Shown here piece by piece: positions 10,641 to 48,291 of a stretch of 64,000 nt of DNA; the stretch's first letter is position 1, and each line of letters starts with the position of its first letter. Under the pieces are notes generated by a model, which was not told where the DNA came from, ran no database searches, and saw only the letters and a list, made by a program, of their open reading frames with translations. The stretch is from Hydrangea macrophylla (lineage: Eukaryota; Streptophyta; Magnoliopsida; Cornales; Hydrangeaceae). Location: NCBI GenBank assembly GCA_033977485.1, contig CM066991.1, positions 30,315,850 through 30,379,849 on the forward strand, read 5' to 3'. Made by a program: the position numbers and the translations under genes.

Positions 10641-10660
10641 ATTTCAAAGATACCCTCTCC

Positions 10661-18221: not shown

Positions 18222-18234
18222 GGCTCTGATACCA
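18222..18234 (-). other. Tekay primer binding site, initiator tRNA-Met type
   Basis: TGGTATCAGAGCC on the minus strand, 8 nt inside the 5' LTR, the usual tRNA-iMet primer site. Confidence 0.9.
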
Positions 18235-18242
18235 CTAAATCC

Positions 18243-26515: not shown

Positions 26516-27545
26516 TGGTACCGGGAGTTTTGCGTCAGGTTGGTAAACAACATTGACAGATACATGTACATTGTCTTCTCCTAACCTCACATGGTGTACC
26601 GTATCATTTGGTCCAACTTTCTCAAAAACGAACCCCGCAGCAACAATTGTATTTGAATTCAAAGCCAATCTACATGGTTGTCCCTATAACGAGTACAATA
26701 ATGAAAGCATCATTGCAAATGGAAAAGGTGACATACAGTAAAGATTTGTAGAATAAAATATCACGCACCTTCCCAATATTAGGTTTAGGATTTGGGAATG
26801 AAAGGTGATTTTGTTGCTTCCCTTTGCTTTCGAACTATTTATACGTCAAGAGAGTTAAAATAAGCAACAATGTACACAAACGTAATTCAATGATAAAAAT
26901 TTTAAAAAGAAAGAATTATAACCTTCTCATTCGTCTTCTTGACCGGTGAATCACATGAATCATTTATATTAGAAGAAACCTTGACATATTTACTATTATC
27001 ACTTTTCTGAGTGTTTGATCCAACCTTCTCAATTGGAGCTGATGTTAATCCACTTTGTAACTTAATCAATTGTTCCTTCAACTTTTGCAACTCATTATCT
27101 TTTTCTTTGCATTTTTCCTCTTCTTCATGTAACCTAGACTCTAACTCACTAATATGTTTCTTAGAGCCACACCTAGAAATATGGAAATAAGTTGTGGGGG
27201 TGACTCCTTTTCCTATACCTCTAACCCGTCCACCGAGCTCGGCAGTACCCAAGGCCATAGTCAGGACGTCTGAGGTTCCTTCAGTGACCAAACTCCCATC
27301 TTCAACTTGGCTTTTCAATGTATCCTTGCAAATTGGCAAACGAGAAAAAAAATAACATATTAAATATATCATTAGTAGATGTATTTTATGCTAATGTTTT
27401 CAAAATAAAAATAAAAATAAAAAACATGGATTAAAACTCACTATTTTTTCACCAATTTGTTTTGCAACATCATCTCGATATTCCCCCTTTTTTATTTTGA
27501 CGAGCTGCTTTCCACAACAATGACCTATCAGCTTCATCAAATGAA
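26516..27545 (-). pseudogene. TnpA-Ulp1 gene, middle part (exons 4b to 7)
   Basis: Exons 27442..27545 (continued from 48568), 26923..27324, 26769..26834 and 26516..26683. The 134-codon exon has the conserved VLTMALGTAELGGRVRGIGK block of plant En/Spm-type (Ptta) proteins, then a coiled coil rich in Glu/Lys/Leu (ISELESRLHEEEEKCKEK) of about 50 residues. The exon ending at 26516 carries the linker before Ulp1 (QPCRLAL...VHVSVNVVYQ). A one-base excess in the AAAAAAGGGGG run near 27500 shifts the frame in exon 4. The Tat element sits in this exon at 27545/48553 and the truncated CACTA cuts exon 7. Confidence 0.85.
27541..27545. repeat. Tat target-site duplication ATGAA, left copy
   Basis: ATGAA precedes TGTGGATATC. 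The right copy is 48553..48557 after GTGTCTACA. Removing the element and one copy restores the length of the TnpA exon. Confidence 0.93.
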
Positions 27546-29851
27546 TGTGGATATCGCAGTTTTTCTTTCTTTTTACCCACAGCTTTTCTTTTAAAATTCT
27601 TTTCCAAAATTTCAAATTCAAAACAAATAAGTCGCCACTTAATTTTTAAAAGGAAAAATTAAGAAACCATTTGAAAGGAAACTGATCGTTTGCGAAACCA
27701 AAGATTAAACTAGGTCCGGGGATTATGGAATGAGAGAGGAAGGAGCCCGCCAGACTAAAACACCCTCTCTCATCCTATCTTGTGATAGGCCTCTACTCAA
27801 CATCCTTTTAATCAAATTTATTAATCTAAGCATGCCCTCAACTAATACATATATACATATACATCACAAAAGCATGTCCAAAGGGTGTAAAATTGTTAAT
27901 GGCAAAATATCATTCATAAACCACATATTTCAGGTAGCAAGCAATATGATATGCGATAAGGAACAAGAGAACTTACCCGGGATCCAGCAGCGATATTCAA
28001 ACGTGCGATGCATACAAACAAAAGAAAATCCTAAGAAAGAGTCTCTAATCATATATACATATAAGGCAAGCTCCTAATTCTAAGGTGTCGCGCATGAGGT
28101 TAAAAATCAATAAAATCAAGGAATGAAATAAACTAAAAGGGAGATGAGAAATTGTACCTCAAATGCGCTACAAAACAAAGATTAGTCCACATGTTTCGCA
28201 TAATAATATGGTATCAAACAATCAATCCTAATTTTCTAACTTAAGTCTATCTAGCATGAAATCCAACTTTATTCAATTACATAGTCCTAATTATAAGCGT
28301 TAATGTACATGAATGAATATGAACAAGGATAAGACATGGATTTATTCACTAATTTTGGCCACTTAACTTCTGGATTTAAGCTAAGTTATCATTATTCAAA
28401 GTATGATTTGGGTCCTAAAACATTAGGAGTCCATTTGAGTTGAGATAAACAAAATTAGACAAAAATAATAGCAGTTTTTCATGAATTACAGAGAGCAGAC
28501 CGGATCTAAAAAAAAGAAAAAACCATGCTTCCAACGGTTGGATCTTAATGATTTTTGGATACAATATGTCTTTGTGAGTCTAGTTTATAACCCAAAAATA
28601 AAATCAAGATTTGAACGGTTAGATCTCCGGGAATATGGAAAACACTAGGCATCACTCAGGAATCTGCAACTCTCTGTCCAGAGATCTTGTACGATTTTTT
28701 AAAAATAGCAAAAAGATGAGAAACACTTAGATCTTTTTAGAGGATCTCCCTAACGAATTAAGGTACCCAGAAATAATTATTAGACACTTCGGAAACTCCG
28801 TTAAAATTCGGATTTATTAGTTTCAAAACGGGTTTACTATTCTGAAATGTTGGACAGAATATTGCATGTACTGAAATCACAAGACCAAACCATCTTAGGC
28901 ATCAAAATCACCTTAATCCAAAAATCACAGTGGTAGAATATTGTGTTATTGACATTTTCCTGTTGGTTTCACTCGTTTTCAACGGTTAGATTTCGAACTA
29001 AAAATCTTTGATCAAAATAAGTTTGTGAACTCATTGTTTTCATTTATCAAGTTCAACTCTATTTGTTAACCCCAACTATTGAATCATGAAGTTGGGCTTA
29101 AACTAAACCATTTTCTCCTACCATTTGATGGTCATTGGAGACTAAAGACCTTCACATTTGTAGATTTCAAAGGAAGTATGAATAGACTTCATGAAATCTC
29201 AAGATGAGGACTCTAAACCATGGAGAAGGGCTTATCATCAAAACCATTTTCTCCTACCATTTGATGGTCATTGGAGATGAAGACATGACTAATACTCATA
29301 AGTTTCAAAGAAAATGTAGAAATGATTTCATGAAATACCAAGTTTAGAGGATCCAAGTCATGAGTATGGGCTTGGATTCATCTATTTGCTTGTGAAATGA
29401 AGTGATGATCAAATTTTGACTCTCATGTAAAGTATAAGCTTACATGGGATTCAAAGGATCATACTCAAGAGATTTCAAGGGAGATATTGAAGATCTCCAA
29501 GAATCTCAAGAGACGAACATAAACCAAAAGAAATACAAGAAGGACTAAATAATTAGAAACAATAACTCATAAGCTTACTAGACAAACTCTAAGATTTAAT
29601 CAAGAAGAACTAACAATGACTTGAAGATTAGAAGCTTAAAAAGAAAAAGAACACAACTAAAGGTTAGAGGGTCACCTCCAAACTATCCTCAAAAATCTTT
29701 CTTTTAAGGTCTTCCAAGCTCTTCTCTCTAATTCTCTAAACTCTCTCTTTTCTCTCAAGATGTTTTAGTGTAATGATAGTGATATCTTTGTATTTTTTTG
29801 GTGTATCTCTTGTGTATATTCCTTGCATATCTTCCAAGGAAGATCCTTCCT

Positions 29852-29859
29852 CTTTTATA
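29852..29859 (-). promoter_or_regulatory. candidate TATA box of the Tat LTR
   Basis: TATAAAAG on the minus strand. The palindrome cluster 29971..30294 begins about 110 bp upstream of it. Same arrangement at 47828..47835 in the 5' LTR. Confidence 0.55.
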
Positions 29860-29970
29860 GACAAAAAATACCAAGTATTTTTAGTGAATTCGGAGTAAAA
29901 GACAGGTGTAAATCTCTCATTTGGTGGTACAATACGTACTTCCTGAAATTAGACAGTCTGCTGCCCAGGG

Positions 29971-30294
29971 CGGCAGTCAGAATTCATCTACGGCAGTCCG
30001 TGGGTGCCGCTGCGGCACTCCGTGACTGCCGCACCGGCATTCCGTGACTGCCGTACGCCTCTCAGTGAGTGCCGCGGCAGATTGTTGATTGCCGGGTTTC
30101 CGTCAACCTTACTTTATCAGATTTTTGTTTTTATCCGCCTACACATACGTATTGTACCACAAAATACGGACTTGGAAAGCAAACGGCAGTCAGAAAATGT
30201 CGGCGGCACTCAGTGAGAGCCATTCCGGCATTCAGTAAATGCCGTACGGTACTCAGTGACTGCAGTTAACGCCGCGGCAATCTGCCGTGTGCCG
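29971..30294. repeat. cluster of 19-bp palindromes in the Tat 3' LTR
   Basis: About ten variants of CGGCACTCAGTGAGTGCCG, a perfect 9-bp inverted repeat around one base. Two groups (29971..30094 and 30184..30294) are separated by AT-rich sequence. Most units keep the CGGCA/TGCCG arms while the centre varies. Confidence 0.88.
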
Positions 30295-30563
30295 TTTTTT
30301 TCTGAACTTCCTCTTTTAGGTTTTTTCTTTTCTCCTTTTTTTCTTCTAAAAAATATTTTCGAAGATTTTCTCCAAAAATGGTGTTTTTTATACCTGAATT
30401 CTCCTAAACACCTGGTATTTTCTTCTTTCTGTGAAATTTTATCGCGTTTGGAGAATTTTCTGAAGAGCTTGGAATACTTCGATTCTTTCGGTCTTTATCA
30501 TCATCGGACGTGGAGGTGACGCTCTCCTAAATTCGACGGTCGGTCAAAATTGGGGTGTCTACA

Positions 30564-30773: not shown

Positions 30774-31008
30774 GGCAGGAACAAAACACACACAAGCACA
30801 AGTAATCATACGGATGAATGCACCTATCCTGTCGTGATGCGAGTGCTATGCAATGGTATTTTTCGAATTGACCTGGTCATACAAGCGCCATGCTCATCAT
30901 GTTTTCCCCACGCATTTTATGTGACGTGTTAGTTAGGGAAGATCACCTAATTCCGTGATTGATGCGAAGATCTCTTACAGGGGTCATGATGCTTTTGATT
31001 TGAAAACG
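30774..31008. other. Tat 3' untranslated spacer
   Basis: No frame or repeat beyond the first partial 60-bp unit, which begins near 31009. Confidence 0.5.
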
Positions 31009-32029
31009 AGGGTAACCGCAAATCTGTTGCGAGAACCGGGAATATAAATCTGTTATATTCCAAAAACGAGGGGTGAACGCAAATCTGTTGCGAGAACCGG
31101 GAATATAAATATGTTATATTCCGAAAACGAGGGTAAACGCAAATCTGTTGCGAGAACCAGGAATATAAATCTGTTATATTCCAAAAATGAGGGTAAACGC
31201 AAATCTGTTGCGAGAACCTGGAATATAAATCTGTTATATTCCAAAAACGAGGGTAAACGCAAATCTGTTGCGAGAACCGAGAATATAAATCTGTTATATT
31301 CCAAAAACGAGGGTAAACGCAAATCTGTTGCGAGAACCGGGAATATAAATCTGTTATATTCTGAAAACGAGGGTAAACGCAAATCTGTTGCGAGAACCGG
31401 GAATATAAATCTGTTATATTCCAAAAACGAGGGTAAACGCAAATCTGTTGCGAGAACCTGGAATATAAATCTGCTATATTCGAAAAACGAGGGTTAACAC
31501 AAATCTATTGCGAGAACCGGGAATATAAATCTGTTACATTCCAAAAACGAGGTGTGAACGCAAATCTGTTGCGAGAACCGGAAATATTAATCTGTTACAT
31601 TCCGAAAACGAGGGTAAACACAAATCTTTTGCGAGAACCGGGAATATAAATCTGTTATATTCCGAAAACGAGGGTAAACGCAAATCTGTTGCGAGAACCG
31701 GGAATATAAATCTGTTATATTCCAAAAACGAGGGTAAACGCAAATCTGTTGCGAGAACCGGGAATATAAATCTGTTATATTCGAAAAATGAGGGTTAACG
31801 CAAATCTGTTGCGAGAACCGGGAATATAAATCTGTTACATTCCAAAAACGAGAGGTGAACGCAAATCTGTTGTGAGAACCGGGAATATAAATCTGATACA
31901 TTCCGAAAACGAGGGTAAACGCAAATCTGTTGCGAGAACCGGGAATATAAATCTGTTATATTCCAAAAACGAGGGTAAACGCAAACATGTTGCGAGAACC
32001 GGGAATATAAATCTGTCATATTCCAAAAA
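31009..32029. repeat. 60-bp tandem array, about 17 copies
   Basis: Units start GAGGGTAAACGCAAATCTGT and end ATATTCCAAAAAC. The period is exactly 60 bp over most of the array, with a few 61-bp units. Copies are about 90 to 97 percent alike by eye. Long frames on both strands here are artefacts of a period divisible by three. Tandem arrays in this position are known for Tat-lineage elements and can seed satellite DNA. Confidence 0.95.
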
Positions 32030-32300: not shown

Positions 32301-32405
32301 CGGCAGTCCGTGACTGCCGTGCGGCATTCACGGAATGCCGTTGCAGCACTCAGTGAGTGCCGCGTGGCAGTCCATCAACTGCCGAACACGGAAAACCAAG
32401 TGCCG
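32301..32405. promoter_or_regulatory. palindrome cluster upstream of the plant-mobile-domain gene
   Basis: Five units, the first CGGCAGTCCGTGACTGCCG, spaced about 21 bp, ending 243 bp before the ATG at 32649. A CT-rich stretch typical of plant 5' untranslated regions follows (32440..32520). No clear TATA box is visible. Confidence 0.7.
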
Positions 32406-32648
32406 CGTTTGAGCGACAGTGGCTAAAACCGCCGGGTTCAATACATTTCTTTCATTCTCTAGATCTTCTCTCTCTCGATTTCTCTCTGGAGAAAATTTTC
32501 CTTTTTCTTTCCTAGCTTGGATTGATCTATCAGGGGCTTATCAGGTTCATTCTACTTGACCGAAACTTGATTAATCTCGTTTATTTCCTTGTTTTTCTGA
32601 AATTTTCATGAATCTAACGCTCGAATTCTCTCTTTTCTTTGACAGATC

Positions 32649-35377
32649 ATGGCGAGTGGTTCTAGGAAGAAGAAGAAGGCCAAGTACACGGCCACTCATC
32701 ATCCTGATGCTACACTCCTTCTCCGGGATCCGGACGAGCATTTATCTGCCCGCGTATTCAAGCGCGAGGTAAACGTTCCTTTTTCTATTTTCAATTTTTC
32801 TCTTTTTAGAACGTATTGTGAATCATGACTTTGGATGTCTCATTTCAAAATGTAAATGCTATGCTTGCAGCGCTTTCACGCATACTTTATTCGTATTTCA
32901 TTTTACTTTTCTCGAGCTTCGTGAATATCATGCTCGATGAATCATAATTTATTATTCTCCCTCATGTGTACCGAACTCGTAAATTTTCTGGAACGTTCCA
33001 AACGCCTTTTATTATTCAAAATTGATTCTTGACCGCTTGTGACTCAAATTGCGCCTATGATTCTCACGAACTTCTCTTTTTAAAACTGCGCTTAAATTTC
33101 TTTTGCACCTTCGCATGTATTCCTGAAAACAAGTTATTCTTTTCTTTTTCTCTTTTTTTTTTTCGAAACCTTGCTAGGACAGCCGAACTGAACGCAAACG
33201 AGCGCCACGTTTGTACAATTTCTGCGAGTATTTCCAGATTTTTTATTTCTTTCTTTTTTTTCCCTTTATCGTCTCCTTTCTTTTTATTGCCATCTGTTTA
33301 TTTACCTTTCTTTTATCCAATTACTAATATCAGAAATCTTGTGATTCTTTCTTACAGCTGCAGCCCAAAGTGCTGAAGGGGCATGGCAGCCTCGCGCATG
33401 GGTATGAGTGGTACACACAGCTCAGTGAGACGGTGAGGGCCCTGGTTGATGCTGCCGGGTTTGGAGACTTCGTCAAACTCTTGACGAAGAGCTCCAACGA
33501 CTTACGGCAGATACACGCATTGGCCGAGCGGTGGTGGGATACGATGAGCACTTTTCATTTCGACTTTGCGGAGATGACGATGACTCCCTTGGATTTTTCG
33601 ATGATCACCGGGATCCCGTTCGGTGGAGAACCTCTGCGATATCTGACGGATCGGGAGTGGGACCAGGTGGAACCTTTGCTAGGAGTGGTCCTGGAGGATT
33701 CCCTGGTCACAGCTCGATGGTTTATGGACACATTTAGGGGCCAGCCGGATTTTACGGACGAGCAGATGGCCAGAGGTTTTCTTATGTACATGCTGGGGTG
33801 CTCTTTGTTGAGCACCAAGGGCCATCGAGTCCATGTGTCCCTGGTAGCATCGCTGGAGCGCCTGGACAGGGTCGACGAGTATGACTGGGCTGGTACAGGG
33901 TTATCTATCCTGTATAAGCATATGGGTGACATCTCCCGAGACAGGCCAGCCTCCACCAGTGGTTATTGGAGAGCGTGGGAGGTATACTTTTTCTATATTT
34001 TATTGCTTTTTTGCATTTTCAGAAATTTATTTAAATTGTGAGACTAACCCTTCCTTTTTATTATTGCAGATTTGGTCCCACGAGTATCTTCGCATGATGT
34101 CTCCCGAGACACGTGAGGCAGACGCCCTTATCATGCCCCAGGGGCTGAAATGGGCGAAGGATAGGGTTGGGCGGAAGACCGGGGCCCACGATTTCATTTT
34201 GATCAGGAACTTCCTGACGAATCTGAGGGAGCAGCACGTTCATTGGCAGCCTTGGCTTAGGGTGCTTCCCGAGGCTCGTGCGGAGATTCGAGAGTCGGCC
34301 GGATATGACCCGACAAGGCGACTCCTTAGCGGGCCAGAGGGCCAGGCGTGGTACTTAGGAGAGAGGGTGACTAGGCAGTCCCTGGCGACCCCTGGATTCT
34401 TTGTGCCATTCCCTCCTCCTGACTCTATGAGGGCCACAGACACTCTTCATGGTAGCGAGCTGACGACCGCTCTGATGGGCCTAGGTATTCACGGCTTCCT
34501 GGATCCCCCTACGGGATATGCGGCGTTCCGTGCCGCTAAGCTGATGTCGAACTTCCCTTTGATGGAAGTGACTCGGGTGAGTATATGATTCCTTTATTAC
34601 TACTTTATGAATTTCCTTTTATTCTCTATTCATGCTTTATTATTTTTTGTTTACAGCCTGTCCCGGCTACCACCCGTCCTCCTGCCTTGCCTGAGTGGGA
34701 TTGGACCATGTCGGCCGTCCCGTTTGGCGAGCCCTACTTGACGACGATCCCCCGACTCACACAGGGCGCCCCCACTATTCCTCTTCATTACGATGTTGTC
34801 CCGCGTGCCTACGCAGAGGAGGGCTTGGCGTACGCCCACAGCGTGCGGCAGTGGGTCCTCGGGCGAGACTGGATGGTAAGAAACTTATCCCTTCCTTTCA
34901 CTTTTACTTTGATTGCCCCTTCTTTTATGACCCTTTATTCTTGGTTCTTGTTTTCAGGCTGAGGGAGCTCGGGCGACTGCTGCGACTCAGTTGAGGGCCC
35001 AGGTATGATCTTTACACCCTTATTCTCCGTATTTTGATTGTCTTTTCAACACTATATGAATTTATCCTTTCTTATTTCAGGTGGAGGAGATCAGAGTCCT
35101 GTCCCAGCAGGTGGGGTATCTTCAGCAGAGGCTCCAGCAGTTCGGCATTCCCCTCAGCAACATTCCTGGGGATGGCGGTGCTGGACGAGGCATGGGACGA
35201 GGCGGTGGTAGCGGCGCTGGTCGCGGCGGAGGCGGTGGCGAGGGTACCAGTAGCGGCAGAGGCAGAGGCGGCGGTGGCGGCGGACATAGAGGGAGCGGTG
35301 GAGGTAGCGGGATAGAGTCGGAGGAGGAGCCCCTCAGGTGTACGACCCGCCAGACTCGCAGCCGGGGCCGAGGCTGA
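32649..35377 (+). CDS. intact six-exon plant mobile domain (PMD) protein, antisense in the Tat element
   Basis: Exons 32649..32768, 33358..33981, 34070..34576, 34657..34875, 34958..35002 and 35081..35377 all have GT-AG borders and all introns are phase 0. They give 603 codons without a stop. The start is ATG in ATCATGGCG followed by a basic run (KKKKAK). Exon 1 has the DPDEHLSARVFKRE lead-in. Exons 2 and 3 hold the PMD (PF10536, aminotransferase-like): FHFDFAEMTMTPLDFSMITG and the later MLGCSLLSTKG and YWRAWEIWSHEYL. Exon 6 starts with a short Gln/Leu coiled coil (QQVGYLQQRLQQFG) and ends in a Gly/Arg-rich tail (GRGMGRGGG, SSGRGRGGG). Host PMD proteins such as Arabidopsis MAIN/MAIL1 are nuclear and act in genome stability and transposon silencing; PMD genes are also carried by transposons. 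What this copy does is unknown. Being antisense to the element's genomic RNA, its introns are not spliced out during retrotransposition. Confidence 0.85.
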
Positions 35378-35742: not shown

Positions 35743-35868
35743 CGGCACTCGGTGAGGTCTCCGCGGCACTCAGTGAGTGCCGCGACGGCAGTCAGTGAAT
35801 GCCGCAACGGCATTCACGGACTGCCGTACGGCATTTCTTTGAGTGTCGCTGCACTTTATCGAGTGCCG
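35743..35868. promoter_or_regulatory. palindrome cluster upstream of the second antisense gene
   Basis: Six units of the 19-bp palindrome, including a perfect CGGCACTCAGTGAGTGCCG near 35763..35781. The cluster ends 26 bp before TTATTTATA (35894..35902), a good TATA box, with the ATG 60 bp further on. Confidence 0.75.
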
Positions 35869-35961: not shown

Positions 35962-37053
35962 ATGGCCCCCATCAGCTCCCAAATCCTTTTCCCCTGGATG
36001 GATACCCTTTTTGGCATTAATAGGCTCAACTTTGAGTGTTTCAGGCTGAATGATCTTTTCTCTTTCCGACGGATGAACTTGAATGAGGGCCTACTTCGAG
36101 TTGCCATCCAATGTTGGGATCCTTCTTCCAACGTCTTTCGTTTTGGCTCTCAGGAGATTTGCCCCTTGTTTGAGGAATTCAGCGCCATTCTTCACACCGA
36201 TCATTCTGCTGAATTGTCGGTTCCCCTAGTTCAGGCTGGGTATGTCCGTGATTTAGCCGCCCTTCTCCACATATCTCGGAATGCGGCGGGCTCTTTTGTT
36301 CATGACAGGTGAATCGACTTTGAGCGCCTTTCTTCTGTTTATGCTCCCATAAGGGACCCTTATAATGGTGAGTATTAGATCATCCGACGTAGTGCTCTGT
36401 CAATTGCTATGCTCTCTTACTTCCTCTTTCAATCATCTTCTGACACTCTTATACCCATTGCCTACGGTTTGCGGGAGATGAAAAGTGCTGTTATGCTGGC
36501 CCTTGGTGAAACTCTGATTGGATTGGGCCATGCTTATGCTACCGGGGCCACATTACATGTCGAGGCACCTTTTGTTCTGCAGATTTGGCTCATGGAGCGT
36601 TTGGACCTCTTTATACACCCCTCCCATCTTCGTGGATCACTTCCTTACGATCGTATGGAAATTCACAACTTATTTCAATCCGTCGATGCATGGCTTGGTT
36701 GGCTCCAGGGTCTCTCTTCTAGTGACATCAGCTGGGTTTGCCCGTAGTGGGCTTGCAGTTCTGTCGCCGTACGCCTTCCTGGACGTCCTGGCATCTGGTT
36801 GCTTGTCTTGCATGCTACTACTTTCTACATCCCTGGCCGTGTGGTCCGTCAGTTCGGACTTTTGCAAGATACTACTGAATCTGTGACTGCTGATTTCACC
36901 AGGGGGTCCTCTTTGCGCCCTTCTATCGCGAAGGCTTTCATCGAGGCTTGGCATAGTCGGATGGCTGTTCCGTGCCCGGGGATTCCAGCTCCGACTGTGC
37001 CTACTGCTAGGTACCTTCTAGAGATTCAGACCTTGGTTGCGAGACGAGCTTGA
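35962..37053 (+). pseudogene. second PMD-like (DUF7745-type) gene, single exon, three stop codons
   Basis: One frame of 364 codons from ATG at 35962 (MAPISSQILF) to 37053. The N-terminal part has RMNLNEGLLRVAIQCWDPSS and VFRFGSQEICPLFEEFSAIL, the pattern of the plant DUF7745/PMD-related family. Three in-frame stops interrupt it: TGA at 36310..36312, TAG near 36379..36381 and TAG at 36745..36747. No shift occurs at any of them, so the frame was once open. Two fit TGG to TGA or TAG, the third CAG to TAG. It lies head-to-tail after the PMD gene with its own palindrome cluster and TATA box. The family assignment is from memory of the pattern and needs a profile search. Confidence 0.7.
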
Positions 37054-37660: not shown

Positions 37661-40600
37661 TCAAGCAAAGTATTTCTTGAGGCGATCGAGGTTAATCAGT
37701 TGTTTAAATTCAACCCCGTCCAGGTCCATGAGATAGGCCGCTCCTCCGGAAAGGAGAGTCTTAATGATGTATGGCCCGACCCAGTTGGGTTTGAATTTTC
37801 CTCTCGGCTCATAAACAGGCAATTTCAGTTCTTTGAGGACCAGGTCACCCTCAGCAAGCTTCCTAGGGCGGACCTTTTTGTTGAAAGCACGAGCTATCCT
37901 CTTCTGGTACCCCCGAGTATGGTTGACCGCAGCCAGCCTCTTCTCATCGAGTAACATCAACTCCTCATATCTTCCTTGTACCCATTCTGATTCGGGGATC
38001 TCACATTCTGCCAAAACCCTAAGAGAGGGTATTTCTACCTCGACTGGGAGAACAGATTCCATCCCGTAGACCAATGAATACGGCGTAGCACCCGTTGAAG
38101 TTCTGACCGAGGTTCGGTATCCCCACAAAGCAAATGGCAGCTTTTCATGCCAATCCTTATATGTATCCGTCGTTTTCCCCAGGATTGCCTTAACATTTTT
38201 GTTTGCTGTTTCTACTGCTCCATTCGTCTGAGGCCTATACGGGGATGATTGGTGACGAGTGATCTTACACTTTTCCAAGAGCGGGATAACTTCTCCCTGG
38301 AAATGACTGCCATGATCGGAGATAAACTCATTCGGGACCCCATACCTGCAGATTATGTTTTTCTCGGTGAAACTCACCACATCTTTGGCTTTTAAAGTTG
38401 CATACGAGGCTGCTTCTACCCACTTTGTAAAATAATCAATTGCCACGATTATGTACCGGTGCCCATTAGAAGCCTTCGGAACTATCTCACCAATGATATC
38501 GATCCCCCACACAGAAAATGGCCAAGGGGTGGTCATGCTATAGAGCTGTGACGGCGGGGTATGCATCAAATTTGCATGAATTTGACACTTGTGACATCTT
38601 CTAACATATTCGCAACAGTCTTTGTCCAAGGTCGTCCAATAGTACCCCTGTCGGATGATCTTCTTTGCCAGTATGTGCCCATTCATATGGGGCCCACACA
38701 CTCCCTCATGTATTTCCTCCATCATTCTCTTAGCTTCTTTTCCATATAGGCACTCCAGATTATACCCAGTGTAGGATTTCTTCCATAGCTTATCTGCATA
38801 AATCACAAATTGGGCGGCGAATCGTCGAATCGCCTTTCTATCCTTTTCTGAGGCTCCTTCGGGGTATTCTCCTTCTTTAATGAACCTCCACACATCCACA
38901 TACCACGGTACTTCCTCTTCGTCTTCCATGGCCGCAACCATTTCAAATGACGGTTGATTCCTCACTTCTATGGATAGCGGGATCATGGCAGTTTTGGAGG
39001 GGATTTGGATCATCGAGGCCAAGGTAGCCAATGAGTCGGCTAGTTGGTTCTCTTCACGAGGGAGGTAGTAAAAAGAAATCCTTTGGAATTGTGCTTTCAG
39101 ACTTTCCAGATAATCATGGTAAGGTCTCAGTTTCTCATGCTTTACCTTCCATTCTCCTCGGACTTGGGATATGATCAAATTGGAATCTCCGAAGACATTA
39201 ATCCATCCGAATTTCAAAGCCAAGGCCGCTTCCATCCCAATTATGCAGGCTTCGTACTCCGCGGTGTTGTTGGTTGAGTTGTACTTGAGTTTGACAGCTA
39301 ATGGGGTAGGGGTCCCATTGGGTGCTATAAGAATGATTCCAACTCCGTAACCTAATTGGTTGGCTGCTCCATCGAAGTACATTTTCCACAAATCCTCCTT
39401 TACCTCCATTATTCCCTCATCCGGGAACTTGAATTCTCCTTCGTCCTCGGATTCTATGGCGAGGTCGGCTAAAAACTCAGCGACAGCCCTTCCTTTCACA
39501 GACTTGGTAGTGACATATTTGATATCGAACTCAGCCAGCATCATGGTCCAATGGGAAATCCTATTGGTCAAGACGGGTTTTTCGAATAGGTATTTTAGTG
39601 GGTCCATTCGGGATATCAGGATTACAGGGAAGGCTAGCATGTAGTGGCGAAGCCGACGGGTACACCAAACTAAGGCCGAACAAGCCTTTTCCAAGGGCGA
39701 GTACTTTAACTCATATCCGACCATTCTTTTGCTCAAGTAATAAATAGCTTTCTCCACGTGCCCCTCTTCTCCTTCTTGGGCCAGCATACACCCCATTGAA
39801 TTTTCAGATACGGAGAGATAAAGTAGCAGGGGTCTCCCAGGTGAAGGTGGTGATAGAATAGGTGGGTTTTGGAGGTAGGTTTTGATCTTATCGAAGGCTT
39901 GTTGGCAAGGGGCGTCCCATTTGAATTTCTCTCCTTTTCTAAGCAGTTTGAATAGTGGGTCGCAGGTTAAGGTGGGTTTGGAAATGAAGCGGCTGATGAA
40001 CTGTATTCTCCCCAAGAATCCTCTCAGTTCTTTCTCATTTTTTGGTGGGTTCATTTCGGTTATGGCTTTTATTTTGGTTGGGTCTACTTCGATCCCCCTT
40101 TGGATAATAAGGAACCCTAACAACTTTCCTGTGGTAACTCCGAAGGTACATTTCTGTGGGTTTAGCCTCATTTTGAATTCCCTCAATCTTTCAAAGAACT
40201 TTATCAAAGCCTGTAGGTGCCCTCCCCTCTCTTTGGATTTCACAATCATATCATCCACATAAACCTCCACCTCTTTGTGGATCATGTCGTGCAGTAAAGT
40301 GGTGGCAGCCCTTTGATAGGTCGCACCTGCATTCTTAAGTCCGAACGGCATAACCCTATAGTAATATGTCCCCCATGGAGTGATGAACGTGGTTTTCTCC
40401 CTATCCTCGGGTGCCATGAGGATTTGATTGTACCCAGAGAATCCATCCATGAAAGATAGAAGCTCATGTCCCGCAGTGTTATCGACCAACACGTCGATGT
40501 GGGGTAACGGGAAATCGTCTTTAGGGCTTGCCTTGTTTAAATCTTGAAAGTCAACGCAAACCCTAACACGACCATCCTTCTTTGGGACAGGTACAATGTT

Positions 40601-41419
40601 GGCAATCCACTCTGGGTACTCGGTGACCATCAAGAATCCAGCCTTTAATTGCTTTTCAACTTCCTCTTTCACTTTAAGTGCCCATTCTGGCCTCATTCGC
40701 CTCAATTTTTGTTTTATGGGTTTTGAATTGGGAAAGAGAGGGATGTGGTGTTGGACTATCTTTGGATCAATGCCTGGTATATCATTATAAGACCATGCAA
40801 AAACATCTTTGAATTCATTTAATAGATTGATTAGTTCTTTGCTTTCTTTATTGCCAAGTGTGGAGCCGATAAAGACATTTTGGGGATTACTTTCATTTCC
40901 TAGATTAATCGTTAGAGTGTCCTCAATGATTTTGCATGCAGATTCTTTTTCTTTTTCAATTAACTTTTGCAATTCATTAGGTATTTCATGATCATCACAT
41001 TCATCACATTCATTAAGCGCGTTCGAGTAGGCAGAATCAGTCGTACTTTCATTGATTTTGTTAGGAGTGATTACAACAGACATAGCAATAGTAAGACGCC
41101 TCATTTGGGCCATTACAGACTCTGGGTGAGGGGGATACTTATCATTAGACTCAAAGACCCACTCCTTGTTGACTCCCTGCTTGAGCTCCATAGTATTACA
41201 ACCTGGCAGTCCTTCGGATTCCGTCTTTTCTTCCTTTCCTGGCTTCGGCTCTTCTTCCGGCGCATCCTCATCACCCCCCTCTTCGACCTTGACTTCCAGG
41301 CCCTCGTCTTCTTTTTCCTTTTCTTCGGCTTTTGCCCCTTCTTCGCCCAACAGGTTCTGCATGACCGGTCCATCCAGTACACCAACCCAATCATTGGTGG
41401 TAGCAGACTTTTCAGGCAT
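37661..41419 (-). CDS. Tat pol polyprotein: reverse transcriptase, RNase H, archaeal-type RNase H, integrase
   Basis: An intact 1252-codon frame starting ATG at 41419 (MPEKSATTND). The acidic N-terminal 100 residues are followed by a linker, then reverse transcriptase with the catalytic YVDD near residue 386. The gypsy RNase H follows, then a second, archaeal-type RNase H beginning WKMYFDGAAN near residue 678. The integrase has an HHCC finger (from about residue 905; CHKCQIHAN) and core residues D (WGIDIIGE, about 973), D (SDHGSHF, about 1033) and E (NGAVETANK, about 1068), ending in a GPY-type module (NWVGPYIIK). The in-frame TAA just upstream (41420..41422) separates it from gag-protease. 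It is the only full-length retrotransposon enzyme in the window and could in principle act in trans. Confidence 0.93.
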   Translation of the reverse strand: MPEKSATTNDWVGVLDGPVMQNLLGEEGAKAEEKEKEDEGLEVKVEEGGDEDAPEEEPKPGKEEKTESEGLPGCNTMELKQGVNKEWVFESNDKYPPHPESVMAQMRRLTIAMSVVITPNKINESTTDSAYSNALNECDECDDHEIPNELQKLIEKEKESACKIIEDTLTINLGNESNPQNVFIGSTLGNKESKELINLLNEFKDVFAWSYNDIPGIDPKIVQHHIPLFPNSKPIKQKLRRMRPEWALKVKEEVEKQLKAGFLMVTEYPEWIANIVPVPKKDGRVRVCVDFQDLNKASPKDDFPLPHIDVLVDNTAGHELLSFMDGFSGYNQILMAPEDREKTTFITPWGTYYYRVMPFGLKNAGATYQRAATTLLHDMIHKEVEVYVDDMIVKSKERGGHLQALIKFFERLREFKMRLNPQKCTFGVTTGKLLGFLIIQRGIEVDPTKIKAITEMNPPKNEKELRGFLGRIQFISRFISKPTLTCDPLFKLLRKGEKFKWDAPCQQAFDKIKTYLQNPPILSPPSPGRPLLLYLSVSENSMGCMLAQEGEEGHVEKAIYYLSKRMVGYELKYSPLEKACSALVWCTRRLRHYMLAFPVILISRMDPLKYLFEKPVLTNRISHWTMMLAEFDIKYVTTKSVKGRAVAEFLADLAIESEDEGEFKFPDEGIMEVKEDLWKMYFDGAANQLGYGVGIILIAPNGTPTPLAVKLKYNSTNNTAEYEACIIGMEAALALKFGWINVFGDSNLIISQVRGEWKVKHEKLRPYHDYLESLKAQFQRISFYYLPREENQLADSLATLASMIQIPSKTAMIPLSIEVRNQPSFEMVAAMEDEEEVPWYVDVWRFIKEGEYPEGASEKDRKAIRRFAAQFVIYADKLWKKSYTGYNLECLYGKEAKRMMEEIHEGVCGPHMNGHILAKKIIRQGYYWTTLDKDCCEYVRRCHKCQIHANLMHTPPSQLYSMTTPWPFSVWGIDIIGEIVPKASNGHRYIIVAIDYFTKWVEAASYATLKAKDVVSFTEKNIICRYGVPNEFISDHGSHFQGEVIPLLEKCKITRHQSSPYRPQTNGAVETANKNVKAILGKTTDTYKDWHEKLPFALWGYRTSVRTSTGATPYSLVYGMESVLPVEVEIPSLRVLAECEIPESEWVQGRYEELMLLDEKRLAAVNHTRGYQKRIARAFNKKVRPRKLAEGDLVLKELKLPVYEPRGKFKPNWVGPYIIKTLLSGGAAYLMDLDGVEFKQLINLDRLKKYFA

Positions 41420-42967
41420 TTACAAGAACGGGTCTCTGTACTCGGAGAATTCATGGGAGAAAAAGATCTCGAACCCCGGCTTTAGACTTTTGTCCTTCTG
41501 GTCCATCCAAGGCTCTGGGAAGCCACAGAAGGGGAACTCCTCTCCTTCCTTTACAAAGTACCCATTGAGCATTTTTAGGTAAGGGTCTAGTGGCGCATTA
41601 ACAGCCTTTTTCTTTGTCCTTAGTTCCTTCTTCGTCGGCTGATACCCCAGGCCGTGAGTGTGAGTCTGAGTAGGAATTCTTGGAAACTCAGGCAGGCCCT
41701 GAAGGTTCTTTCCCAATCCTAATCCTGGAAAGAAACCCATCTTCTTCATGATCCCTGCGACCACTGGACTGGCATACTGATCGAAATGGAGCAGTAGAAA
41801 CTCTCTCGGCTTTTCTTCTTCCAACATGCTGATAAACTCGAACCCTCCCATTTTTGTTTCTTCTTCTTGCATCTGTAATTCCAGTACCGGTGCGCTTGAT
41901 GATGCTTCAGACAAACGAATCCAGTTGTCCCCGAGAATGTCGCAGACTTGGCCCTTCCAAACGCATTTGACCTTTTGATGTATGGTGGATGGTATGGTAC
42001 CTAAGCTATCCAACCATAGCCTCCCAAGCAACAGGTTGAAAGAAGGAGGAATGTCGATGACCTGAAATTCGGCTTCCTTCTCAAGTGGACTGACAGCGAG
42101 GTGAAGGAGAATTATACCCATGACAGTTCTCTGAGTGTTGTCGTATGCTCTCACCCTTTGCTCAGATGGTATGAATGTCGATTCGTCCAAGCCCATGCGC
42201 TTGGCCGTTCGGAATGGTCACACATTTAAGGCTGATCCATTGTCCACCAGACAGGCAGGCACAGTGTTTCCTAAGCATTCGACTGTGACATACAAGGGCT
42301 TGTTATGAACGGGCCCTCCGGGAGGTAGATCATCGGTTGAGAAAGAAATAGCGAGAGCTGGGATCCTACTAATCATCCCCACGAGGTCTCCTGGTGTTGT
42401 ATTGATAGAAACATCATATTGGTTCAAAGCATCCAAGACTGCCTGTCTGTGCTTTTTGGAGGCGATTAGCAATCCCCAGATGGTGATGTTAGCTTGTGTT
42501 TTCCTCATCTGCTTTAAGACCCTATCCTCTTCTTCTTCTTCTTCACTCATTTTCCATTTCCCTTTCTCCAGCTCCCTCCCCGAGTGATCTTCCTCTAGTT
42601 CATGCGGTTTGAAGTGTCTACCAGACCGAGTTAGGTGATTGATCTCCTCTCTTGCCCAAATGTTGTCAGTTTCTGAAACGATCTCCGAGCTTTCTTCTTC
42701 AACCTTTGCCTCTTCATCGCTTTGATACCACAGATCATCATCCCCTACCTGGTCTATGTTCCGATCATTGCCTTCTTGAATCCACCAATCTGACTGCCCC
42801 GTCACTTCATTTTCCCATATCTCTGGCTGGCTTGTAAGCATACAGATCCCCAGATTTTCTGGTAACTGATAAAACTTTCTTGGTTCCCCGACTTTTGTGA
42901 TTAGCTTGGATGGGTCAAATGTCATTCCTTCTACCCCTAAGAAATAAAGACCCTGCGGCGGCGGCAC
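41420..42967 (-). pseudogene. Tat protease region with stop codons
   Basis: The frame runs from about 43020 to 41423 on the minus strand, broken by TGA at 42218..42220 and ended by TAA at 41420..41422. The protease active site reads CLVDNGSALNV just before the TGA; relatives continue VCP, so TGC to TGA is likely. Downstream are the conserved LLLGRLWLDSLG segment and a G-patch-like block (GIMKKMGFFPGLGLGKNLQG). The TAA is immediately followed by the ATG of pol in the same frame, so it may be a natural boundary or a CAA to TAA change. Confidence 0.85.
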
Positions 42968-43022
42968 AGCACGATGGTTTGGCAGAGGATTCTTGGTGAC
43001 ATTAGGGGCTTTGACAGGCGAT

Positions 43023-44291
43023 TCAGATCACTTTATTGTCGATGAGGTCTTGGATTTCATGCCTTAACCTCATGCACCGATCCGTCGAGTGTCCTTTCTG
43101 CTGATGAAATTTGCAGAAGAGATCCCCTTGGAAATTCGGCGGAAGTGGACTTGGCAGAGGTCGAGGTTCCAACTGGCGGAGATGCCCCTTTGCTAACAAC
43201 CTGTCAAGAGCGGTCGATAATGATACTCCCAGATCTGAGAATTTTCTTGGCGGCTTATCCCCTCCTCCTCTTGGATGGTTTCTAGTGATATTAAATTTTC
43301 TCTCCGGCTCGCTAAGTGCATTGACATCGGTGGGGCCAGAGTGACCCCCCGAATGCCCCCCATTTGATCCATAACTGGGCCTCCGATATCGGTTCGGTGG
43401 TTCCTCCTTCTTGATTATTCCTTCTTGAATCGCATCTTCAATCCTTGTCCCCACATCGAACACCTCAGCAAAAGTGTTGATTGACTGAAACCTCATCTTC
43501 TCCTGATAAACTGGCTGCAGGTTCTTCATCGACATTCGGATTTGGTCTTTTTCTGATGGCCTCTGCACCATTTTCGCGGCTTTCCCTCTCCATCGACTCA
43601 GATACTCAGCAAATGATTCTTTGTTCCCTTGCCTGGTTGTTTCTAGATCTCGGACAGTGACGTCCAAGTCTTGATTGTACTCATACTGGGCCACAAATGA
43701 CTTCACGACTTCCTCCCAAATTCTGGTTTTGCCCGGCTCGAGAGTAAGATACCAGGATAGAGCAGCTCCTGTTAAGGTTTGCTGAAATAAGACAGACATC
43801 ATGGTAGTGCTCAGTCCACTAGGTTGAAAAGCTCCTATGCACATTCGGATATGACTGCGGGGATTCCCAGTCCCGTCAAACTTGTCAAAGATTGGCTTCC
43901 TGAACCCGGCGGGCAGGGTTTCGTGGACCCCGTCGTACAGACCTTCCAACTCCATCAAATAAGTGTCTACCCCTTGAGCCTTGCGCACTACCCTTTCCAG
44001 CTTCTCTATTTTCTCGGTTAGTAACTTCTATTTCTCAGCTTTTTCTCTTTCTCTATTGGCCCGCAGCGCATCAGTCCATTGCGCCCACTGATCATCAAAC
44101 CAATCGCCCTCTCCTCCTCCCAAAGGTGGGTCCATGACAGGTGGAACTTTCGGTGGTGGTCGGCGGTTCATCTCTTCTATCATTCCCATCATGCGGTTCA
44201 TGTTTTTGGCCTGTCGCCTCATTTGCTCCGCTTGTTGTTCTACCAGTATCCTTAATCCGGCTACTTCTCCGTTGTTTCTTTCTTCCATCAT
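43023..44291 (-). pseudogene. Tat gag, one stop and a frameshift at its end
   Basis: ATG at 44291 starts an N-terminal coiled coil (LVEQQAEQMRRQAKNMNRMM). TAG at 44028..44030 interrupts with the frame continuing unchanged (AEK stop KLLTEKIEKLERV), fitting CAG to TAG. The gag core follows (FDGTGNPRSHIRM, LTGAALSWYLTL), then a zinc-like C-KFHQQKG-H-STDR-C. At about 43023 a TGA appears, while the homologous sequence (E-S-P-V-K-A-P-N-V) continues in another phase into the protease frame, so there is a one-base insertion there or a two-base loss. Confidence 0.88.
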
Positions 44292-45465
44292 TTCAATGTC
44301 TTCTCTTCTTATCAGCCTTGCCGCGGGTCCCCTAAACCAGGTTGATGCTATCTTTGCTCCTACAAAAAGGTTTAATTTCGTTTTAAAAAACCTATGTATT
44401 TCTGTTTTAAAAGATTTTTGATAAAATAAAAGCCCCTTTTCTTATTTCAACGCATGTCATGCGGATGCAATGCATGCGTGCGTGTGTGCCTACTCTATAT
44501 GCCAGAAAGAAAAGAGAAAATCCTAATCCTAACACATAAACACATAAGCACATAAAATCCTCACCCATGACAAGTGCGCTGATTTCTCCTCTCATTGTGA
44601 TCCTGACCTTCTCAGAGGTTGGTCATTTCAAAATTTTTGAAGTTTATTTGGAAAGCATTTTGGATGCTAAAAAAAGGTTCTTGAGAATGCTTTAAACGCT
44701 CTTTTTATAAAAATGATTGGGCTTTTATTTGGAAGCTCATTCTTTCCCAAGATAATTTTTTTTTTCAAGATTTTTCGAATTTATTGTTGAAATTGAAAAT
44801 ATGCCTTAACAAAGGTTATTTTGGGAGCTTTACTTTGAAAGGGGAAATAAAGATTTTCCTTTTGGAATGGTCAAGTAAAAAGAATTTCTTCGGGTAGGGG
44901 GATCACATGACCGGATTATCACCGTACTTTCCATGAGTTTGGATACATACAAGGTCAATGATGCTTAGCTGGACATGATATAAGAAATATAATCCCATAA
45001 TCAAGGTTCGGCATGTTCTCCAAATGTCGCAGAACATGAGGAGAATTTGCTGAAAGGTGATTAAAAGATTATACATCTTTCATCAAATAAGTATCGTCAT
45101 CATCTCAAGTAATCCCTTCCGGGCACACAAAACTTCCTAACACATAATCCTAATCAAGAATTGATTTCCTAAGATTGAAAGGTTCTACAGAAACTATCAT
45201 GCACAGGCTGGGTTTTGGTCGAATAAGGGACCCTTGACACACACCTGATAGGATGCTTCATATACCAAATCATGGTACGAGATCAAGGGTGATCACACAG
45301 TCCCATGATGACTTGACCGACCGGGTTGCCCCGAGTCTCCAAGGTCATAGTTCCGTGCAATCGACTAGCTGGACATGCAAGTGAAATGCAACAGGCACAC
45401 AAAGATTAATTAATTTGATTAAAAGGATATAAGTACAATCCTCAAGTGAACCCAAAATCAGAATT
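44292..45465. other. Tat 5' leader, no gene
   Basis: About 1.2 kb between the primer site and gag with no frame I can support. Confidence 0.6.
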
Positions 45466-45515
45466 CTTGTCTGTGAAACCAGTGATTCTGGGTTCGATCC
45501 CCAGTAGAGTCGCCA
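45466..45515 (-). other. extended primer binding site derived from the 3' half of tRNA-Arg
   Basis: The primer site (minus strand TGGCGACTCTACTGGGGA, 45498..45515) lies 3 nt inside the 5' LTR. The plus strand here resembles the last 50 nt of a tRNA-Arg(ACG), from the anticodon region through the T-loop (GGTTCGATCCCC) to the CCA end, well beyond the usual 12 to 18 nt. It is not a tRNA gene: the 5' half is absent. Confidence 0.7.
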
Positions 45516-47827
45516 GATTGTGGATATCGCAGTTTTTCTTTCTTTTTACCCACAGTTTTTCTTTTAAAATTCTTTTCCAAAATTTCAAATTCAAAACAAA
45601 TGAGTCGCCACTTAATTTTTAAAAGGAAAAATTAAGAAACCATTTGAAAGGAAACTGATCGTTTGCGAAACCAAAGATTAAACTAGGTCCGGGGATTATG
45701 GAATGAGAGAGGAAGGAGCCCGCCAGACTAAAACACCCTCTCTCATCCTATCTTGTGATAGGCCTCTACTCAACATCCTTTTAATCAAATTTATTAACCT
45801 AAGCATGTCCTCAACTAATACATATATACATATACATCACAAAAGCATGTCCAAAGGGTGTAAAATTGCTAATGGCAAAATATCATTCATAAACCACATA
45901 TTTCAGGTAGCAAGCAATATGATATGCGATAAGGAACAAGAGAACTTACCCGGGTTCCAGCAGCGATATTTAAACGTGCGATGCATACAAACAAAAGAAA
46001 ATCCTAAGAAAGAGTCTCTAATCATATATACATATAAGGCAAGCTCCTAATTCTAAGGTGTCGCGCCTGAGGTTAAAAATCAATAAAATCAAGGAATGAA
46101 ATAAACTAAAAGGGAGATGAGAAATTGTACCTCAAATGCGCTACAAAACAAAGATTAGTCCACATATTTCGCATAATAATATGATATCAAACAATCAATC
46201 CTAATTTTCTAACTTAAGTCTATCTAGCATGAAATCCAACTTTATTCAATTACATAGTCCTAATTATAAGCGTTAATGTACATGTATGAATATGAACAAG
46301 GATAAGACATGGATTTATTCACTAATTTTGGCCACTTAACTTCTGAATTTAAGCTAAGTTATCATTATTCAAAGTATGATTTGGGTCCTAAAACATTAGG
46401 AGTCCATTTGAGTTGAGATAAACAAAATTAAACAAAAACAATAGTAGTTTTTCATGAATTACAGAGAGCAGACCGGATCTTAAAAAAAAAAAAGAAAACA
46501 CCAAGCTTCCAACGGTTGGATCTTAATGATTTTTGGATACAATATGACTTTGTGAGTCTAGTTTATAACCCAAAAAGAAAATCAAGGTTTGAACGGTTAG
46601 ATCTCCGGGAATATGGAAAACACTAGGCATCACTCAGGAATCTGCAACTCTCTGTCCAGAGATCTTGTACGATTTTTTAAAAATAGCAAAAAGATGAGAA
46701 ACACTTAGATCTTTTTAGAGGATCTCCCTAACGCATTAAGGTACCCAGAAAAAATTATTAGAGACTTCGGAAACTCCATTAAAATTCGGATTTATTAGTT
46801 TCAAAACGGGTTTACTGTTCTGAAATGTTGGACAGAATATTGCATGTACTGAAATCACAAGACCAAACCATCTTAGGCATGAAATCACCTTAAACCAAAA
46901 ATCACAGTGGTAGAATATTGTGTTATTGACATTTTCCCGTTGGTTTCACTTATTTTCAACGGTTAGATTTTGAACTAAAAATCTTTGATCAAAATCAGTT
47001 TGTGAACTCACTATTTTCATTTATCAAGTTCAACTCTATTTGTTAACCCCAACTATTGAATCATGAAGTTGGGCTTAAACTAAACCATTTTATCCTACCA
47101 TTTGATGGTCATTGGAGACTAAAGACCTTCACATTTGTAGATTTCAAAGGAAGTATGAATAGACTTCATGAAATCTCAAGATGAGGACTCTAAACCATGG
47201 AGAAGGGCTTAGCATCAAAACCATTTTCTCCTACCATTTGATGGTCATTGGAGATGAAGAAATGACTAATACTCATAAGTTTCAAAGAAAATGTAGAAAT
47301 GATTTCATGAAATACCAAGTTTAGAGGATCCAAGTCATGAGTATGGGCTTGGATTCATCTATTTGCTTGTGAAATGAAGTGATGATCAAATTTTGACTCT
47401 CATGTAAAGTATAAGCTTACATGGGATTCAAAGGATCATACTCAAGAGATTTCAAGGGAGATATTGAAGATCTCCAAGAATCTCAAGAGAGGAACATGAA
47501 CCAAAAGAAATACAAGAAGGACTAAATAATTAGAAACAAGAACTCATAAGCTTACTAGACAAACTCTAAGATTTAATCAAGAAGAACTAACAATGACTTG
47601 AAGATTAGAATCTTAAAAAGAAAAAGAACACAACTAAGGTTAGAGGGTCACCTCCAAACTATCCTCAAAAATCTTTCTTTTAAGGTCTTCCAAGCTCTTC
47701 TCTCTAGTTCTCTAAACTCTCTCTTTTCTCTCAAGATGTTTTAGTGTAATGGTAGTGATCTCTTTGTATTTTTTTGGTGTATCTCTTGTGTATATTCCTT
47801 GCATATCTTCCAAGGAAGATCCTTCCT

Positions 47828-47835
47828 CTTTTATA
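47828..47835 (-). promoter_or_regulatory. candidate TATA box of the Tat 5' LTR promoter
   Basis: TATAAAAG on the minus strand, about 115 bp downstream of the palindrome cluster in the direction of transcription. Confidence 0.55.
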
Positions 47836-47949
47836 GACAAAAAAATACCAAGTATTTTCAATGAATTCGGAGTAAAAGACAGGTGTAAATCTCTCATTTG
47901 GTGGTACAATACGTACTTCCTGAAATTAAACAGTTTGCTGCCCAGGGCG

Positions 47950-48291
47950 GTAGTCAGAATTCATCTACGGCAGTCCGTGGGTGCCGCTGCGTCACTCCGT
48001 GACTGCCGCGCCGGCATTCCGTGACTGCCGCACGGCTCTCAGTGAGTGCCGCGGCAGATTGTTGATTGCCGGGTTTCCGTCAACCTTACTTTATCAGATT
48101 TTTGTTTTTATCCGCCTACACATACGTATTATACCACAAAATACAGACTTGGAAAGCAAACGGCAGTCAGAAAATGTCGGCGGCACTCAGTGAGAGCCAT
48201 TCCGGCATTCAGTAAATGCCGTACGGTACTCAGTGAGTGCCGCGCGGCATTCACTGAATGCCGCGACAATCTGCCGTGTGCCATTTTTTGC
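47950..48291. repeat. cluster of 19-bp palindromes in the Tat 5' LTR
   Basis: Counterpart of 29971..30294 with one more complete unit (CGGCATTCACTGAATGCCG near 48244). The left LTR has a shorter, altered stretch at that position, so units are gained or lost. Confidence 0.88.

What the first reader, a model, noticed from the sequence alone, without database searches (positions are those of the whole stretch)
32649..35377. Intact, spliced plant-mobile-domain gene carried antisense inside a Tat retrotransposon
Seen: six exons with GT-AG borders, all phase 0, 603 codons, no stop, opposite in strand to gag-pol and inside LTRs with a clean TSD. Known: PMD genes occur in hosts and transposons, and some Tat-lineage elements carry antisense ORFs. 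Inferred: antisense orientation lets the introns survive the element's RNA stage, because they are not introns in the genomic RNA. The gene has stayed open while gag, protease and its neighbour broke, which suggests recent selection or recent acquisition. A PMD factor with an RGG-like tail might counter host silencing or control the element.
Basis: partly seen in the sequence, partly recalled or inferred. Interest (0 to 1): 0.9.

Follow-up and report, generated by a model that had tools for sequence, protein, structure and literature searches.

The report
Spliced antisense gene inside a retrotransposon
A large plant retrotransposon appears to carry, on its opposite strand, a complete intron-containing gene of a family used in transposon silencing, with the same short mirror-image DNA repeats upstream of the element's own promoter and of this gene; the gene model is solid, but what the protein does is a guess until other copies and RNA are examined.

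Summary
The six exons give 603 codons; a search free to use any ATG, phase and strong GT/AG pair returned the same model, while 120 randomised sequences reached at most 224 codons. Pfam PMD scores 111.9 bits, cut-off 34.9. The gene is antisense to gag-pol, between pol and the 3' LTR of a 21.0-kb Ty3/gypsy Tat element (27546-48552, TSD ATGAA, LTRs 97.1% identical), Ogre-like.

PMD genes in Gypsy elements, antisense ORFs in Tat elements, and the idea of TE-made PMDs as counter-silencers are in print. "Stayed open while others broke" is weak: neutral simulation leaves this gene intact in 15.8% of runs, and the 1,252-codon pol ORF is open too.

Added here: a 19-bp dyad motif, 23 sites (46 two-strand matches, 0.12 expected), all inside this element, in 20-22-bp arrays upstream of the LTR TATA box, the PMD gene and the broken neighbour gene. 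This suggests shared control, possibly by the element's own PMD protein.

The decisive test, other copies in this genome, could not be run: the genome search did not complete (21 attempts).

The parts
27546..30563 (-). 3' LTR of the element, with 8 dyad sites (29991-30265)
   Evidence: 97.1% identity to the other LTR; ends; dyads
45519..48552 (-). 5' LTR, with 9 dyad sites (47968-48263) upstream of a TATAAAA box at 47835
27541..27545 (.). target-site duplication ATGAA (left copy)
48553..48557 (.). target-site duplication ATGAA (right copy)
45479..45515 (-). primer-binding site, complementary to a tRNA 3' half with intact T-arm; tRNA-Arg by recall
   Evidence: sequence shown; tRNA identity recalled, not tested
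37661..44441 (-). gag-pol region in five pieces; RT, RNase H, additional RNase H (RVT_3) and integrase in an open 1,252-codon ORF; gag and a G-patch (22.9 bits, cut-off 22) in the interrupted part
31003..32029 (.). 60-bp tandem repeat, 17 copies, between 3' LTR and PMD promoter region
32301..32362 (.). dyad array (3 sites) 287-348 bp upstream of the PMD ATG
32545..32645 (+). candidate 5'-UTR intron: donor CAG/GTTCAT, acceptor just before the ATG
   Evidence: donor rank 9 of 134, acceptor rank 8 of 170; inference
32649..32768 (+). PMD gene exon 1 (lysine-rich N terminus SRKKKKAK)
33358..33981 (+). PMD gene exon 2
34070..34576 (+). PMD gene exon 3
34657..34875 (+). PMD gene exon 4
34958..35002 (+). 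PMD gene exon 5
35081..35377 (+). PMD gene exon 6 with Gly/Arg-rich tail
35743..35826 (.). dyad array (3 sites, plus one at 4 mismatches) ending 136 bp upstream of the neighbour's ATG and starting 366 bp downstream of the PMD stop
35962..37050 (+). second antisense PMD-superfamily gene, interrupted by three in-frame stops; first piece DUF7745 22.1 bits (cut-off 26), middle piece no match, last piece PMD 17.5 bits (cut-off 34.9)
   Evidence: (pieces searched apart)

Best explanation
This is an Ogre-like Tat retrotransposon, about 0.9-1.6 million years in place (rates recalled), that carries an accessory PMD gene as part of its own gene set. The gene is read from its own promoter on the strand opposite to gag-pol, spliced from at least six exons, and would make a probably nuclear protein (Lys-rich N terminus, Gly/Arg-rich tail; inference). 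Its introns persist because they lie backwards in the genomic RNA; so, unless they were gained later, the gene entered the element as DNA or unspliced antisense RNA, not from a spliced mRNA. Shown: gene model, domain, position, LTRs, TSD, dyad arrays upstream of the three starts. Inferred: transcription, splicing, presence across the family, and a regulatory role. Most likely mechanism: a factor binding the dyad arrays co-regulates the LTR promoter and both antisense genes; the element's own PMD (or DUF7745-like) protein is one candidate (about 0.2), a host transcription factor another (about 0.3).
For: Recovery of the exact model and nulls; splice-site ranks; PMD domain; homology changing frame across intron 2; four Ericaceae relatives (family checked for two species), of which P0002 and P0003 share Arg/Gly-rich C-terminal parts by eye. 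LTRs, TSD, PBS. Additional RNase H between RH and integrase, as in Ogre and Retand (PMC6317226). Pol relatives: Vaccinium 72%, then Tasmannia, Vitis, and others including legumes; 9 of the 120 listed (of 4,948 hits) bear DUF7745. Dyads: 23 sites, all in the element; 46 two-strand matches against 0.12 expected; spacing 20-22 bp within clusters; mirror bases at the variable position pair in 10 of 16 units, permutation 0.025.
Against: No RNA evidence. No second copy seen, so the PMD gene could be private to this insertion. Homology supports only intron 2 clearly; for intron 1 the alignment to P0002 is gapless but with one identity in the last five residues of exon 1 (by eye); introns 3-5 rest on splice-site strength and phase. 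The openness of the gene is not significant. Dyads differ between the two LTRs more than the rest does (8/175 against 59/2841). No evidence that any PMD protein binds this motif; the structure model was too poor to use (pLDDT 40).
Confidence: 0.6

Rival explanations
1. The PMD gene is a captured host gene carried as a passenger by this one copy or a small subfamily; it is decaying and has no role in the element's life.
For: No other copy could be examined; the remaining openness fits neutrality (15.8%); the nearest database protein is named MAINTENANCE OF MERISTEMS-like, a host-gene name (the other two are 'hypothetical').
Against: A second PMD-superfamily gene lies beside it in the same orientation (weak matches); PMD is reported in 57% of Ogre elements and in Gypsy-only clades PMD-A1/A2 (PMC6317226, PMC5418596); dyad arrays link its upstream region to the LTR.
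Confidence: 0.2
2. The antisense transcript matters as RNA: paired with genomic RNA it yields dsRNA and small RNAs that limit the element, whatever the protein does.
For: The transcripts would be complementary over about 2.7 kb; in tea (Ericales) 175 PHAS loci lie at PMD genes (PMC10673657); the idea is raised for antisense aORFs in PMC7264820.
Against: A 603-codon reading frame with strong splice sites is not needed for such a role.
Confidence: 0.1
3. A separate DNA element carrying the PMD gene jumped into a resident retrotransposon, so it never passed through the RNA stage.
For: The arrays on the two sides of the PMD gene match in inverted orientation, 89% over 65 bp, as terminal inverted repeats would.
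Against: Self-complementary units align inverted anyway; a search for exact flanking duplications of 7-12 bp gave one unconvincing 7-mer; the same motif is in both LTRs.
Confidence: 0.07
4. The gene model is a chance string of open segments.
For: No transcript evidence is available here.
Against:: domain match, homology changing frame across the intron, top-ranked sites, 120 null sequences far shorter.
Confidence: 0.03

Closest known systems
Ogre group of Tat Ty3/gypsy elements (PMC6317226, PMC6431247, PMC9289625: passages seen)
   Same: Large LTRs (3.0 kb here; 1.9-6.5 kb in PMC6431247), additional RNase H between RH and integrase, PMD-superfamily extra genes; G-patch in some relatives (8 of 120 listed).
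   Different: Internal region 15.0 kb here, 11-13 kb in PMC6431247. In three of the four relatives scanned, DUF7745 lies N-terminal to gag (P0050, P0101) or RT (P0122) in the same predicted protein, thus sense; the fourth, P0004, has none. Here two such genes lie after pol, antisense, one with five introns.
Retand and Grande antisense ORFs (PMC11963269 parts 1-3 of 5 and passages; PMC7264820 abstract and passages)
   Same: [quoted passage not shown] Grande's gene23 has its own promoter and a nuclear product.
   Different: Those encode mainly Transposase_28 (not found here); 'intron' does not occur in either main text, though PMC7264820 asks for a search for antisense and spliced transcripts.
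Gypsy-encoded PMD-A1/A2 and host MAIN/MAIL1 (PMC5418596, PMC7156037, PMC8616336: passages)
   Same: PMD domain; TE and host relatives known; host members act in silencing; PMC8616336 suggests TE-made PMDs as counter-silencers.
   Different: Clade of this PMD not tested; orientation and intron content of the known Gypsy PMDs not described in the passages seen.
VANC anti-silencing proteins of VANDAL DNA transposons (PMC5735166 passages)
   Same: TE-encoded factor whose targets are tandem arrays of a short motif in the element's noncoding regions: a functional analogy for the dyad arrays.
   Different: No sequence relation tested; the VANC motifs are 8-9 bases, not a 19-bp dyad; VANDALs are DNA transposons (class II, PMC8616336).

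Membership tests
LTR retrotransposon, Ty3/gypsy | paired LTRs, TSD, PBS, RT before integrase | tested here: met
Tat group | additional RNase H domain | tested here: met
   RVT_3 at residues 683-800, between RT_RNaseH and rve; Tat feature as in PMC6317226
Ogre subgroup | tRNA-Arg PBS | tested here: inconclusive
   tRNA 3' half evident; Arg identity recalled; Ogre PBS type from PMC9289625
Ogre subgroup | RT phylogeny with Ogre | tested here: inconclusive
   relatives include Lathyrus, Vicia and Cicer proteins with DUF7745; no tree with Retand references built
Ogre subgroup | PMD-superfamily extra gene ahead of gag, sense (as in the relatives) | tested here: not met
   PMD genes are downstream and antisense; no Pfam hit in 44031-44441 and no ORF of 120 aa or more listed beyond it up to the PBS. 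Hence 'Ogre-like', not filed as Ogre
Retand subgroup | antisense Transposase_28 gene after pol | tested here: not met
   no PF04195 match in the antisense gene or neighbour pieces at E up to 1
PMD family PF10536 | score above Pfam gathering cut-off | tested here: met
   111.9 against 34.9 bits
PMD-A clade (Gypsy) | phylogenetic position | not tested
   no reference sequences obtained
VANC-type anti-silencing factor | binding to the arrayed motif and loss of methylation | not testable with these tools
   needs EMSA/ChIP and methylation data

The most novel reading that the evidence does not exclude
A retrotransposon with its own gene-regulation circuit: an antisense, spliced PMD gene encodes a nuclear factor that binds 19-bp dyad arrays in the LTR and in front of both antisense genes, so that the element counters silencing of, or tunes, itself - a VANC-like strategy in an LTR element, using the same protein family that the host uses for silencing. 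TE-made PMDs as counter-silencers have been suggested in print (PMC8616336); the target arrays and the spliced antisense gene would be the new part.
Probability: 0.18. Interest if true: 0.86.

Novelty: new variant of a known kind. Interest (0 to 1): 0.55.

Why it matters
Antisense genes of Tat elements have no established function, and the authors of a review ask whether antisense and spliced transcripts exist (PMC7264820). This copy offers a precise spliced gene model and a candidate control site shared with the LTR, so function can be tested by standard binding and expression assays. If the PMD protein controls the element, it would bear on whether host silencing proteins MAIN/MAIL1 arose from, or gave rise to, element-borne PMDs, a question left open in PMC5418596.

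Tried and rejected
The genome search (own, PF10536) was sent 21 times and never answered, so copy number, presence in other copies and dN/dS are untested. Protein searches with the spliced protein (3 hits among 7,996 scored candidates) and with alignment A1 of four sequences (2 hits, one new, P0124) gave four proteins of Rhododendron and Vaccinium; the glycine-rich tail probably crowded the candidate list (inference). Viral contigs: 5 and 25 pattern matches, no PMD relative; six contigs with a single exact motif match each were not followed up. PDB: 13 matches at E 0.25 or weaker, none a PMD protein by name. AlphaFold of P0001 with alignment A2 gave pLDDT 40, so no fold search was made. The bacterial promoter scan is not informative for a plant. 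Terminal-inverted-repeat origin of the PMD block was considered and put low.

Literature was searched. Of the 11 papers holding both 'plant mobile domain' and 'retrotransposon', passages were seen of nine; PMC8298464 and PMC6419827 were not opened. PMC13317346 had none of the terms sought. The key 2011 survey of extra ORFs (Steinbauerova) is not held, so an antisense or spliced PMD may have been described there. In the dyad permutation the 8 sites of the 3' LTR were left out as copies of the 5' LTR and the 4-mismatch site at 35743 was included: 16 units.

Full report
Observation. The predicted gene is real as a reading frame. Splicing the six exons at GT-AG borders gives 603 codons and a stop, every exon a multiple of three. 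The minus strand gave 126 codons; 60 Markov sequences gave at most 224 and 60 block shuffles at most 177. The donors rank 1, 2, 3, 4, 6 of 134 and the acceptors 1, 2, 3, 4, 9 of 170 in 32500-35500 (matrices recalled and rough). The introns are T-rich on the + strand (44-55% T against 21% in exons), as plant introns are (recall).

Homology gives separate support, mainly for intron 2. Pfam PMD matches residues 75-351 at 111.9 bits. tblastn with Rhododendron vialii P0001 gives one piece (37.9% identity) that loses similarity at the end of exon 2, running 30 bp on, and another (30.5%) in a second frame that begins 3 bp before exon 3; P0001 itself is continuous there. With P0002 and P0003 the pieces overlap the intron more widely. 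The exon 1/exon 2 border aligns without a gap to Vaccinium P0002 (by eye), but with little identity on the exon 1 side. Introns 3-5 have no such support. P0002 and P0003 also have Arg/Gly-rich C-terminal parts.

The element. LTRs 27546-30563 and 45519-48552 differ at 67 of 3,016 aligned positions with five gaps, K2P 0.0226, or about 0.9-1.6 million years at recalled rates. The TSD is ATGAA, and a tRNA-like PBS follows the 5' LTR after three bases. Pol carries RT, RNase H, an additional RNase H and integrase in that order, which PMC6317226 gives for the angiosperm Tat groups Ogre and Retand. Searching with residues 180-680 of the pol ORF, the closest protein is Vaccinium darrowii at 72%, followed by Tasmannia, Vitis and others, with many legume proteins further down; of the 120 listed among 4,948 hits, 9 bear DUF7745 and 8 a G-patch. 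This element has a G-patch match at 22.9 bits, cut-off 22. I call it Ogre-like and do not file it as Ogre: no tree against Retand was made, and its extra genes are placed differently. The host is unknown; the best pol and PMD matches point towards Ericales, weakly.

What is known. PMD was found in 57% of Ogre elements (PMC6317226, passages), was the most frequent extra domain in another survey (PMC9289625), and forms two Gypsy-only clades (PMC5418596). [quoted passage not shown] Antisense genes between pol and the 3' LTR are the rule in recent Retand copies, mostly Transposase_28 (PMC11963269, parts 1-3 of 5). Four pol relatives were scanned: in P0050 and P0101 DUF7745 precedes gag, in P0122 (a model fused to tubulin) it precedes RT, and P0004 has none. 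So the arrangement here, two PMD-superfamily genes antisense after pol and one of them with five introns, differs from those. I found no description of a spliced antisense PMD in the passages reached through, but the 2011 survey that first described these ORFs is not held.

Selection. I simulated neutral decay at the LTR-derived rate (1.13% substitutions per copy plus indels). The PMD CDS shows no lesion in 15.8% of 1,500 runs (mean 1.95 lesions); the 1,252-codon pol ORF in 1.5% of 600 runs. The PMD gene's openness is therefore weak evidence for selection after insertion.

The dyad arrays. The pattern CGGCANTCNGTGANTGCCG with up to 3 mismatches gives 46 matches on the two strands; 100 shuffles averaged 0.12 and never exceeded 2. 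These are 23 places, all inside this element: 9 in the 5' LTR, 8 in the 3' LTR, 3 upstream of the PMD ATG and 3 upstream of the neighbour's ATG. Within clusters units follow each other at 20-22 bp, about two helical turns. In the 5' LTR they lie 133-428 bp upstream of TATAAAA at 47835; for the PMD gene 287-348 bp upstream of the ATG; for the neighbour they end 136 bp upstream of the ATG, before a TATA-like site at 35899. No canonical TATA was found between 32291 and the PMD ATG. At 5 mismatches stray matches appear elsewhere, so the claim rests on the 3-4 mismatch level. The variable base and its mirror position pair in 10 of 16 units (permutation 0.025; the 8 sites of the 3' LTR left out), which hints that the symmetry is maintained; the units are related by duplication, so this is suggestive only. 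The array before the neighbour is also 366 bp behind the PMD stop, so its assignment is an inference. Against constraint: the two LTR copies differ at 8 of 175 array positions and 59 of 2,841 others.

Mechanism. The gene is antisense, so its introns are not introns in the genomic RNA and survive reverse transcription; this follows from orientation, and retrotransposition reporters rely on the converse, an intron in the element's sense that is removed (PMC12786077). Unless the introns were gained later, acquisition was at the DNA level or through unspliced antisense RNA. The shared arrays suggest that the LTR promoter and both antisense genes answer to one factor. If that factor is the element's PMD protein, the design resembles VANC, which binds short motifs in tandem repeats of its own transposon and removes methylation (PMC5735166). 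This is an analogy of function, not of descent, and I give it about 0.2; a host transcription factor is at least as likely. A small-RNA role is possible: tea has 175 PHAS loci at PMD genes (PMC10673657).

Limits. No transcript data, no second copy, no usable structure, no PMD tree. The own-genome search that would settle family membership did not answer in 21 attempts.

Noticed in passing
window 29991-30265, 32301-32362, 35743-35826, 47968-48263: Arrays of a 19-bp dyad motif at 20-22-bp spacing in both LTRs and upstream of both antisense genes; none elsewhere in the 64 kb at up to 4 mismatches.
   Followed up: yes
window 32545-32645: Possible 5'-UTR intron: a strong acceptor ends just before the PMD ATG (acceptor rank 8 of 170, donor rank 9 of 134).
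   Followed up: partly
window 31003-32029: 60-bp unit tandem repeat, 17 copies at 93% match, between the 3' LTR and the PMD upstream region.
   Followed up: no
window 36309-36368: Two good splice-donor-like sites sit next to the first two stops of the neighbour gene; no convincing acceptor model was found.
   Followed up: partly
window 9696-21230: A second long repeat pair of 3.0 kb, 98.2% identical (9696-12668 and 18243-21230), with minus-strand RT, RNase H and integrase zinc-binding matches between: a second Ty3/gypsy-like element.
   Followed up: partly
window 49644-53330: Minus-strand pieces with Transposase_21 (tnp2), Transposase-associated and DUF4216 domains, as in CACTA/En-Spm elements (name recalled).
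   Followed up: partly
window 5126-7807: Two adjoining minus-strand ORFs, the 6350-7807 one with a gag match: another retrotransposon.
   Followed up: partly
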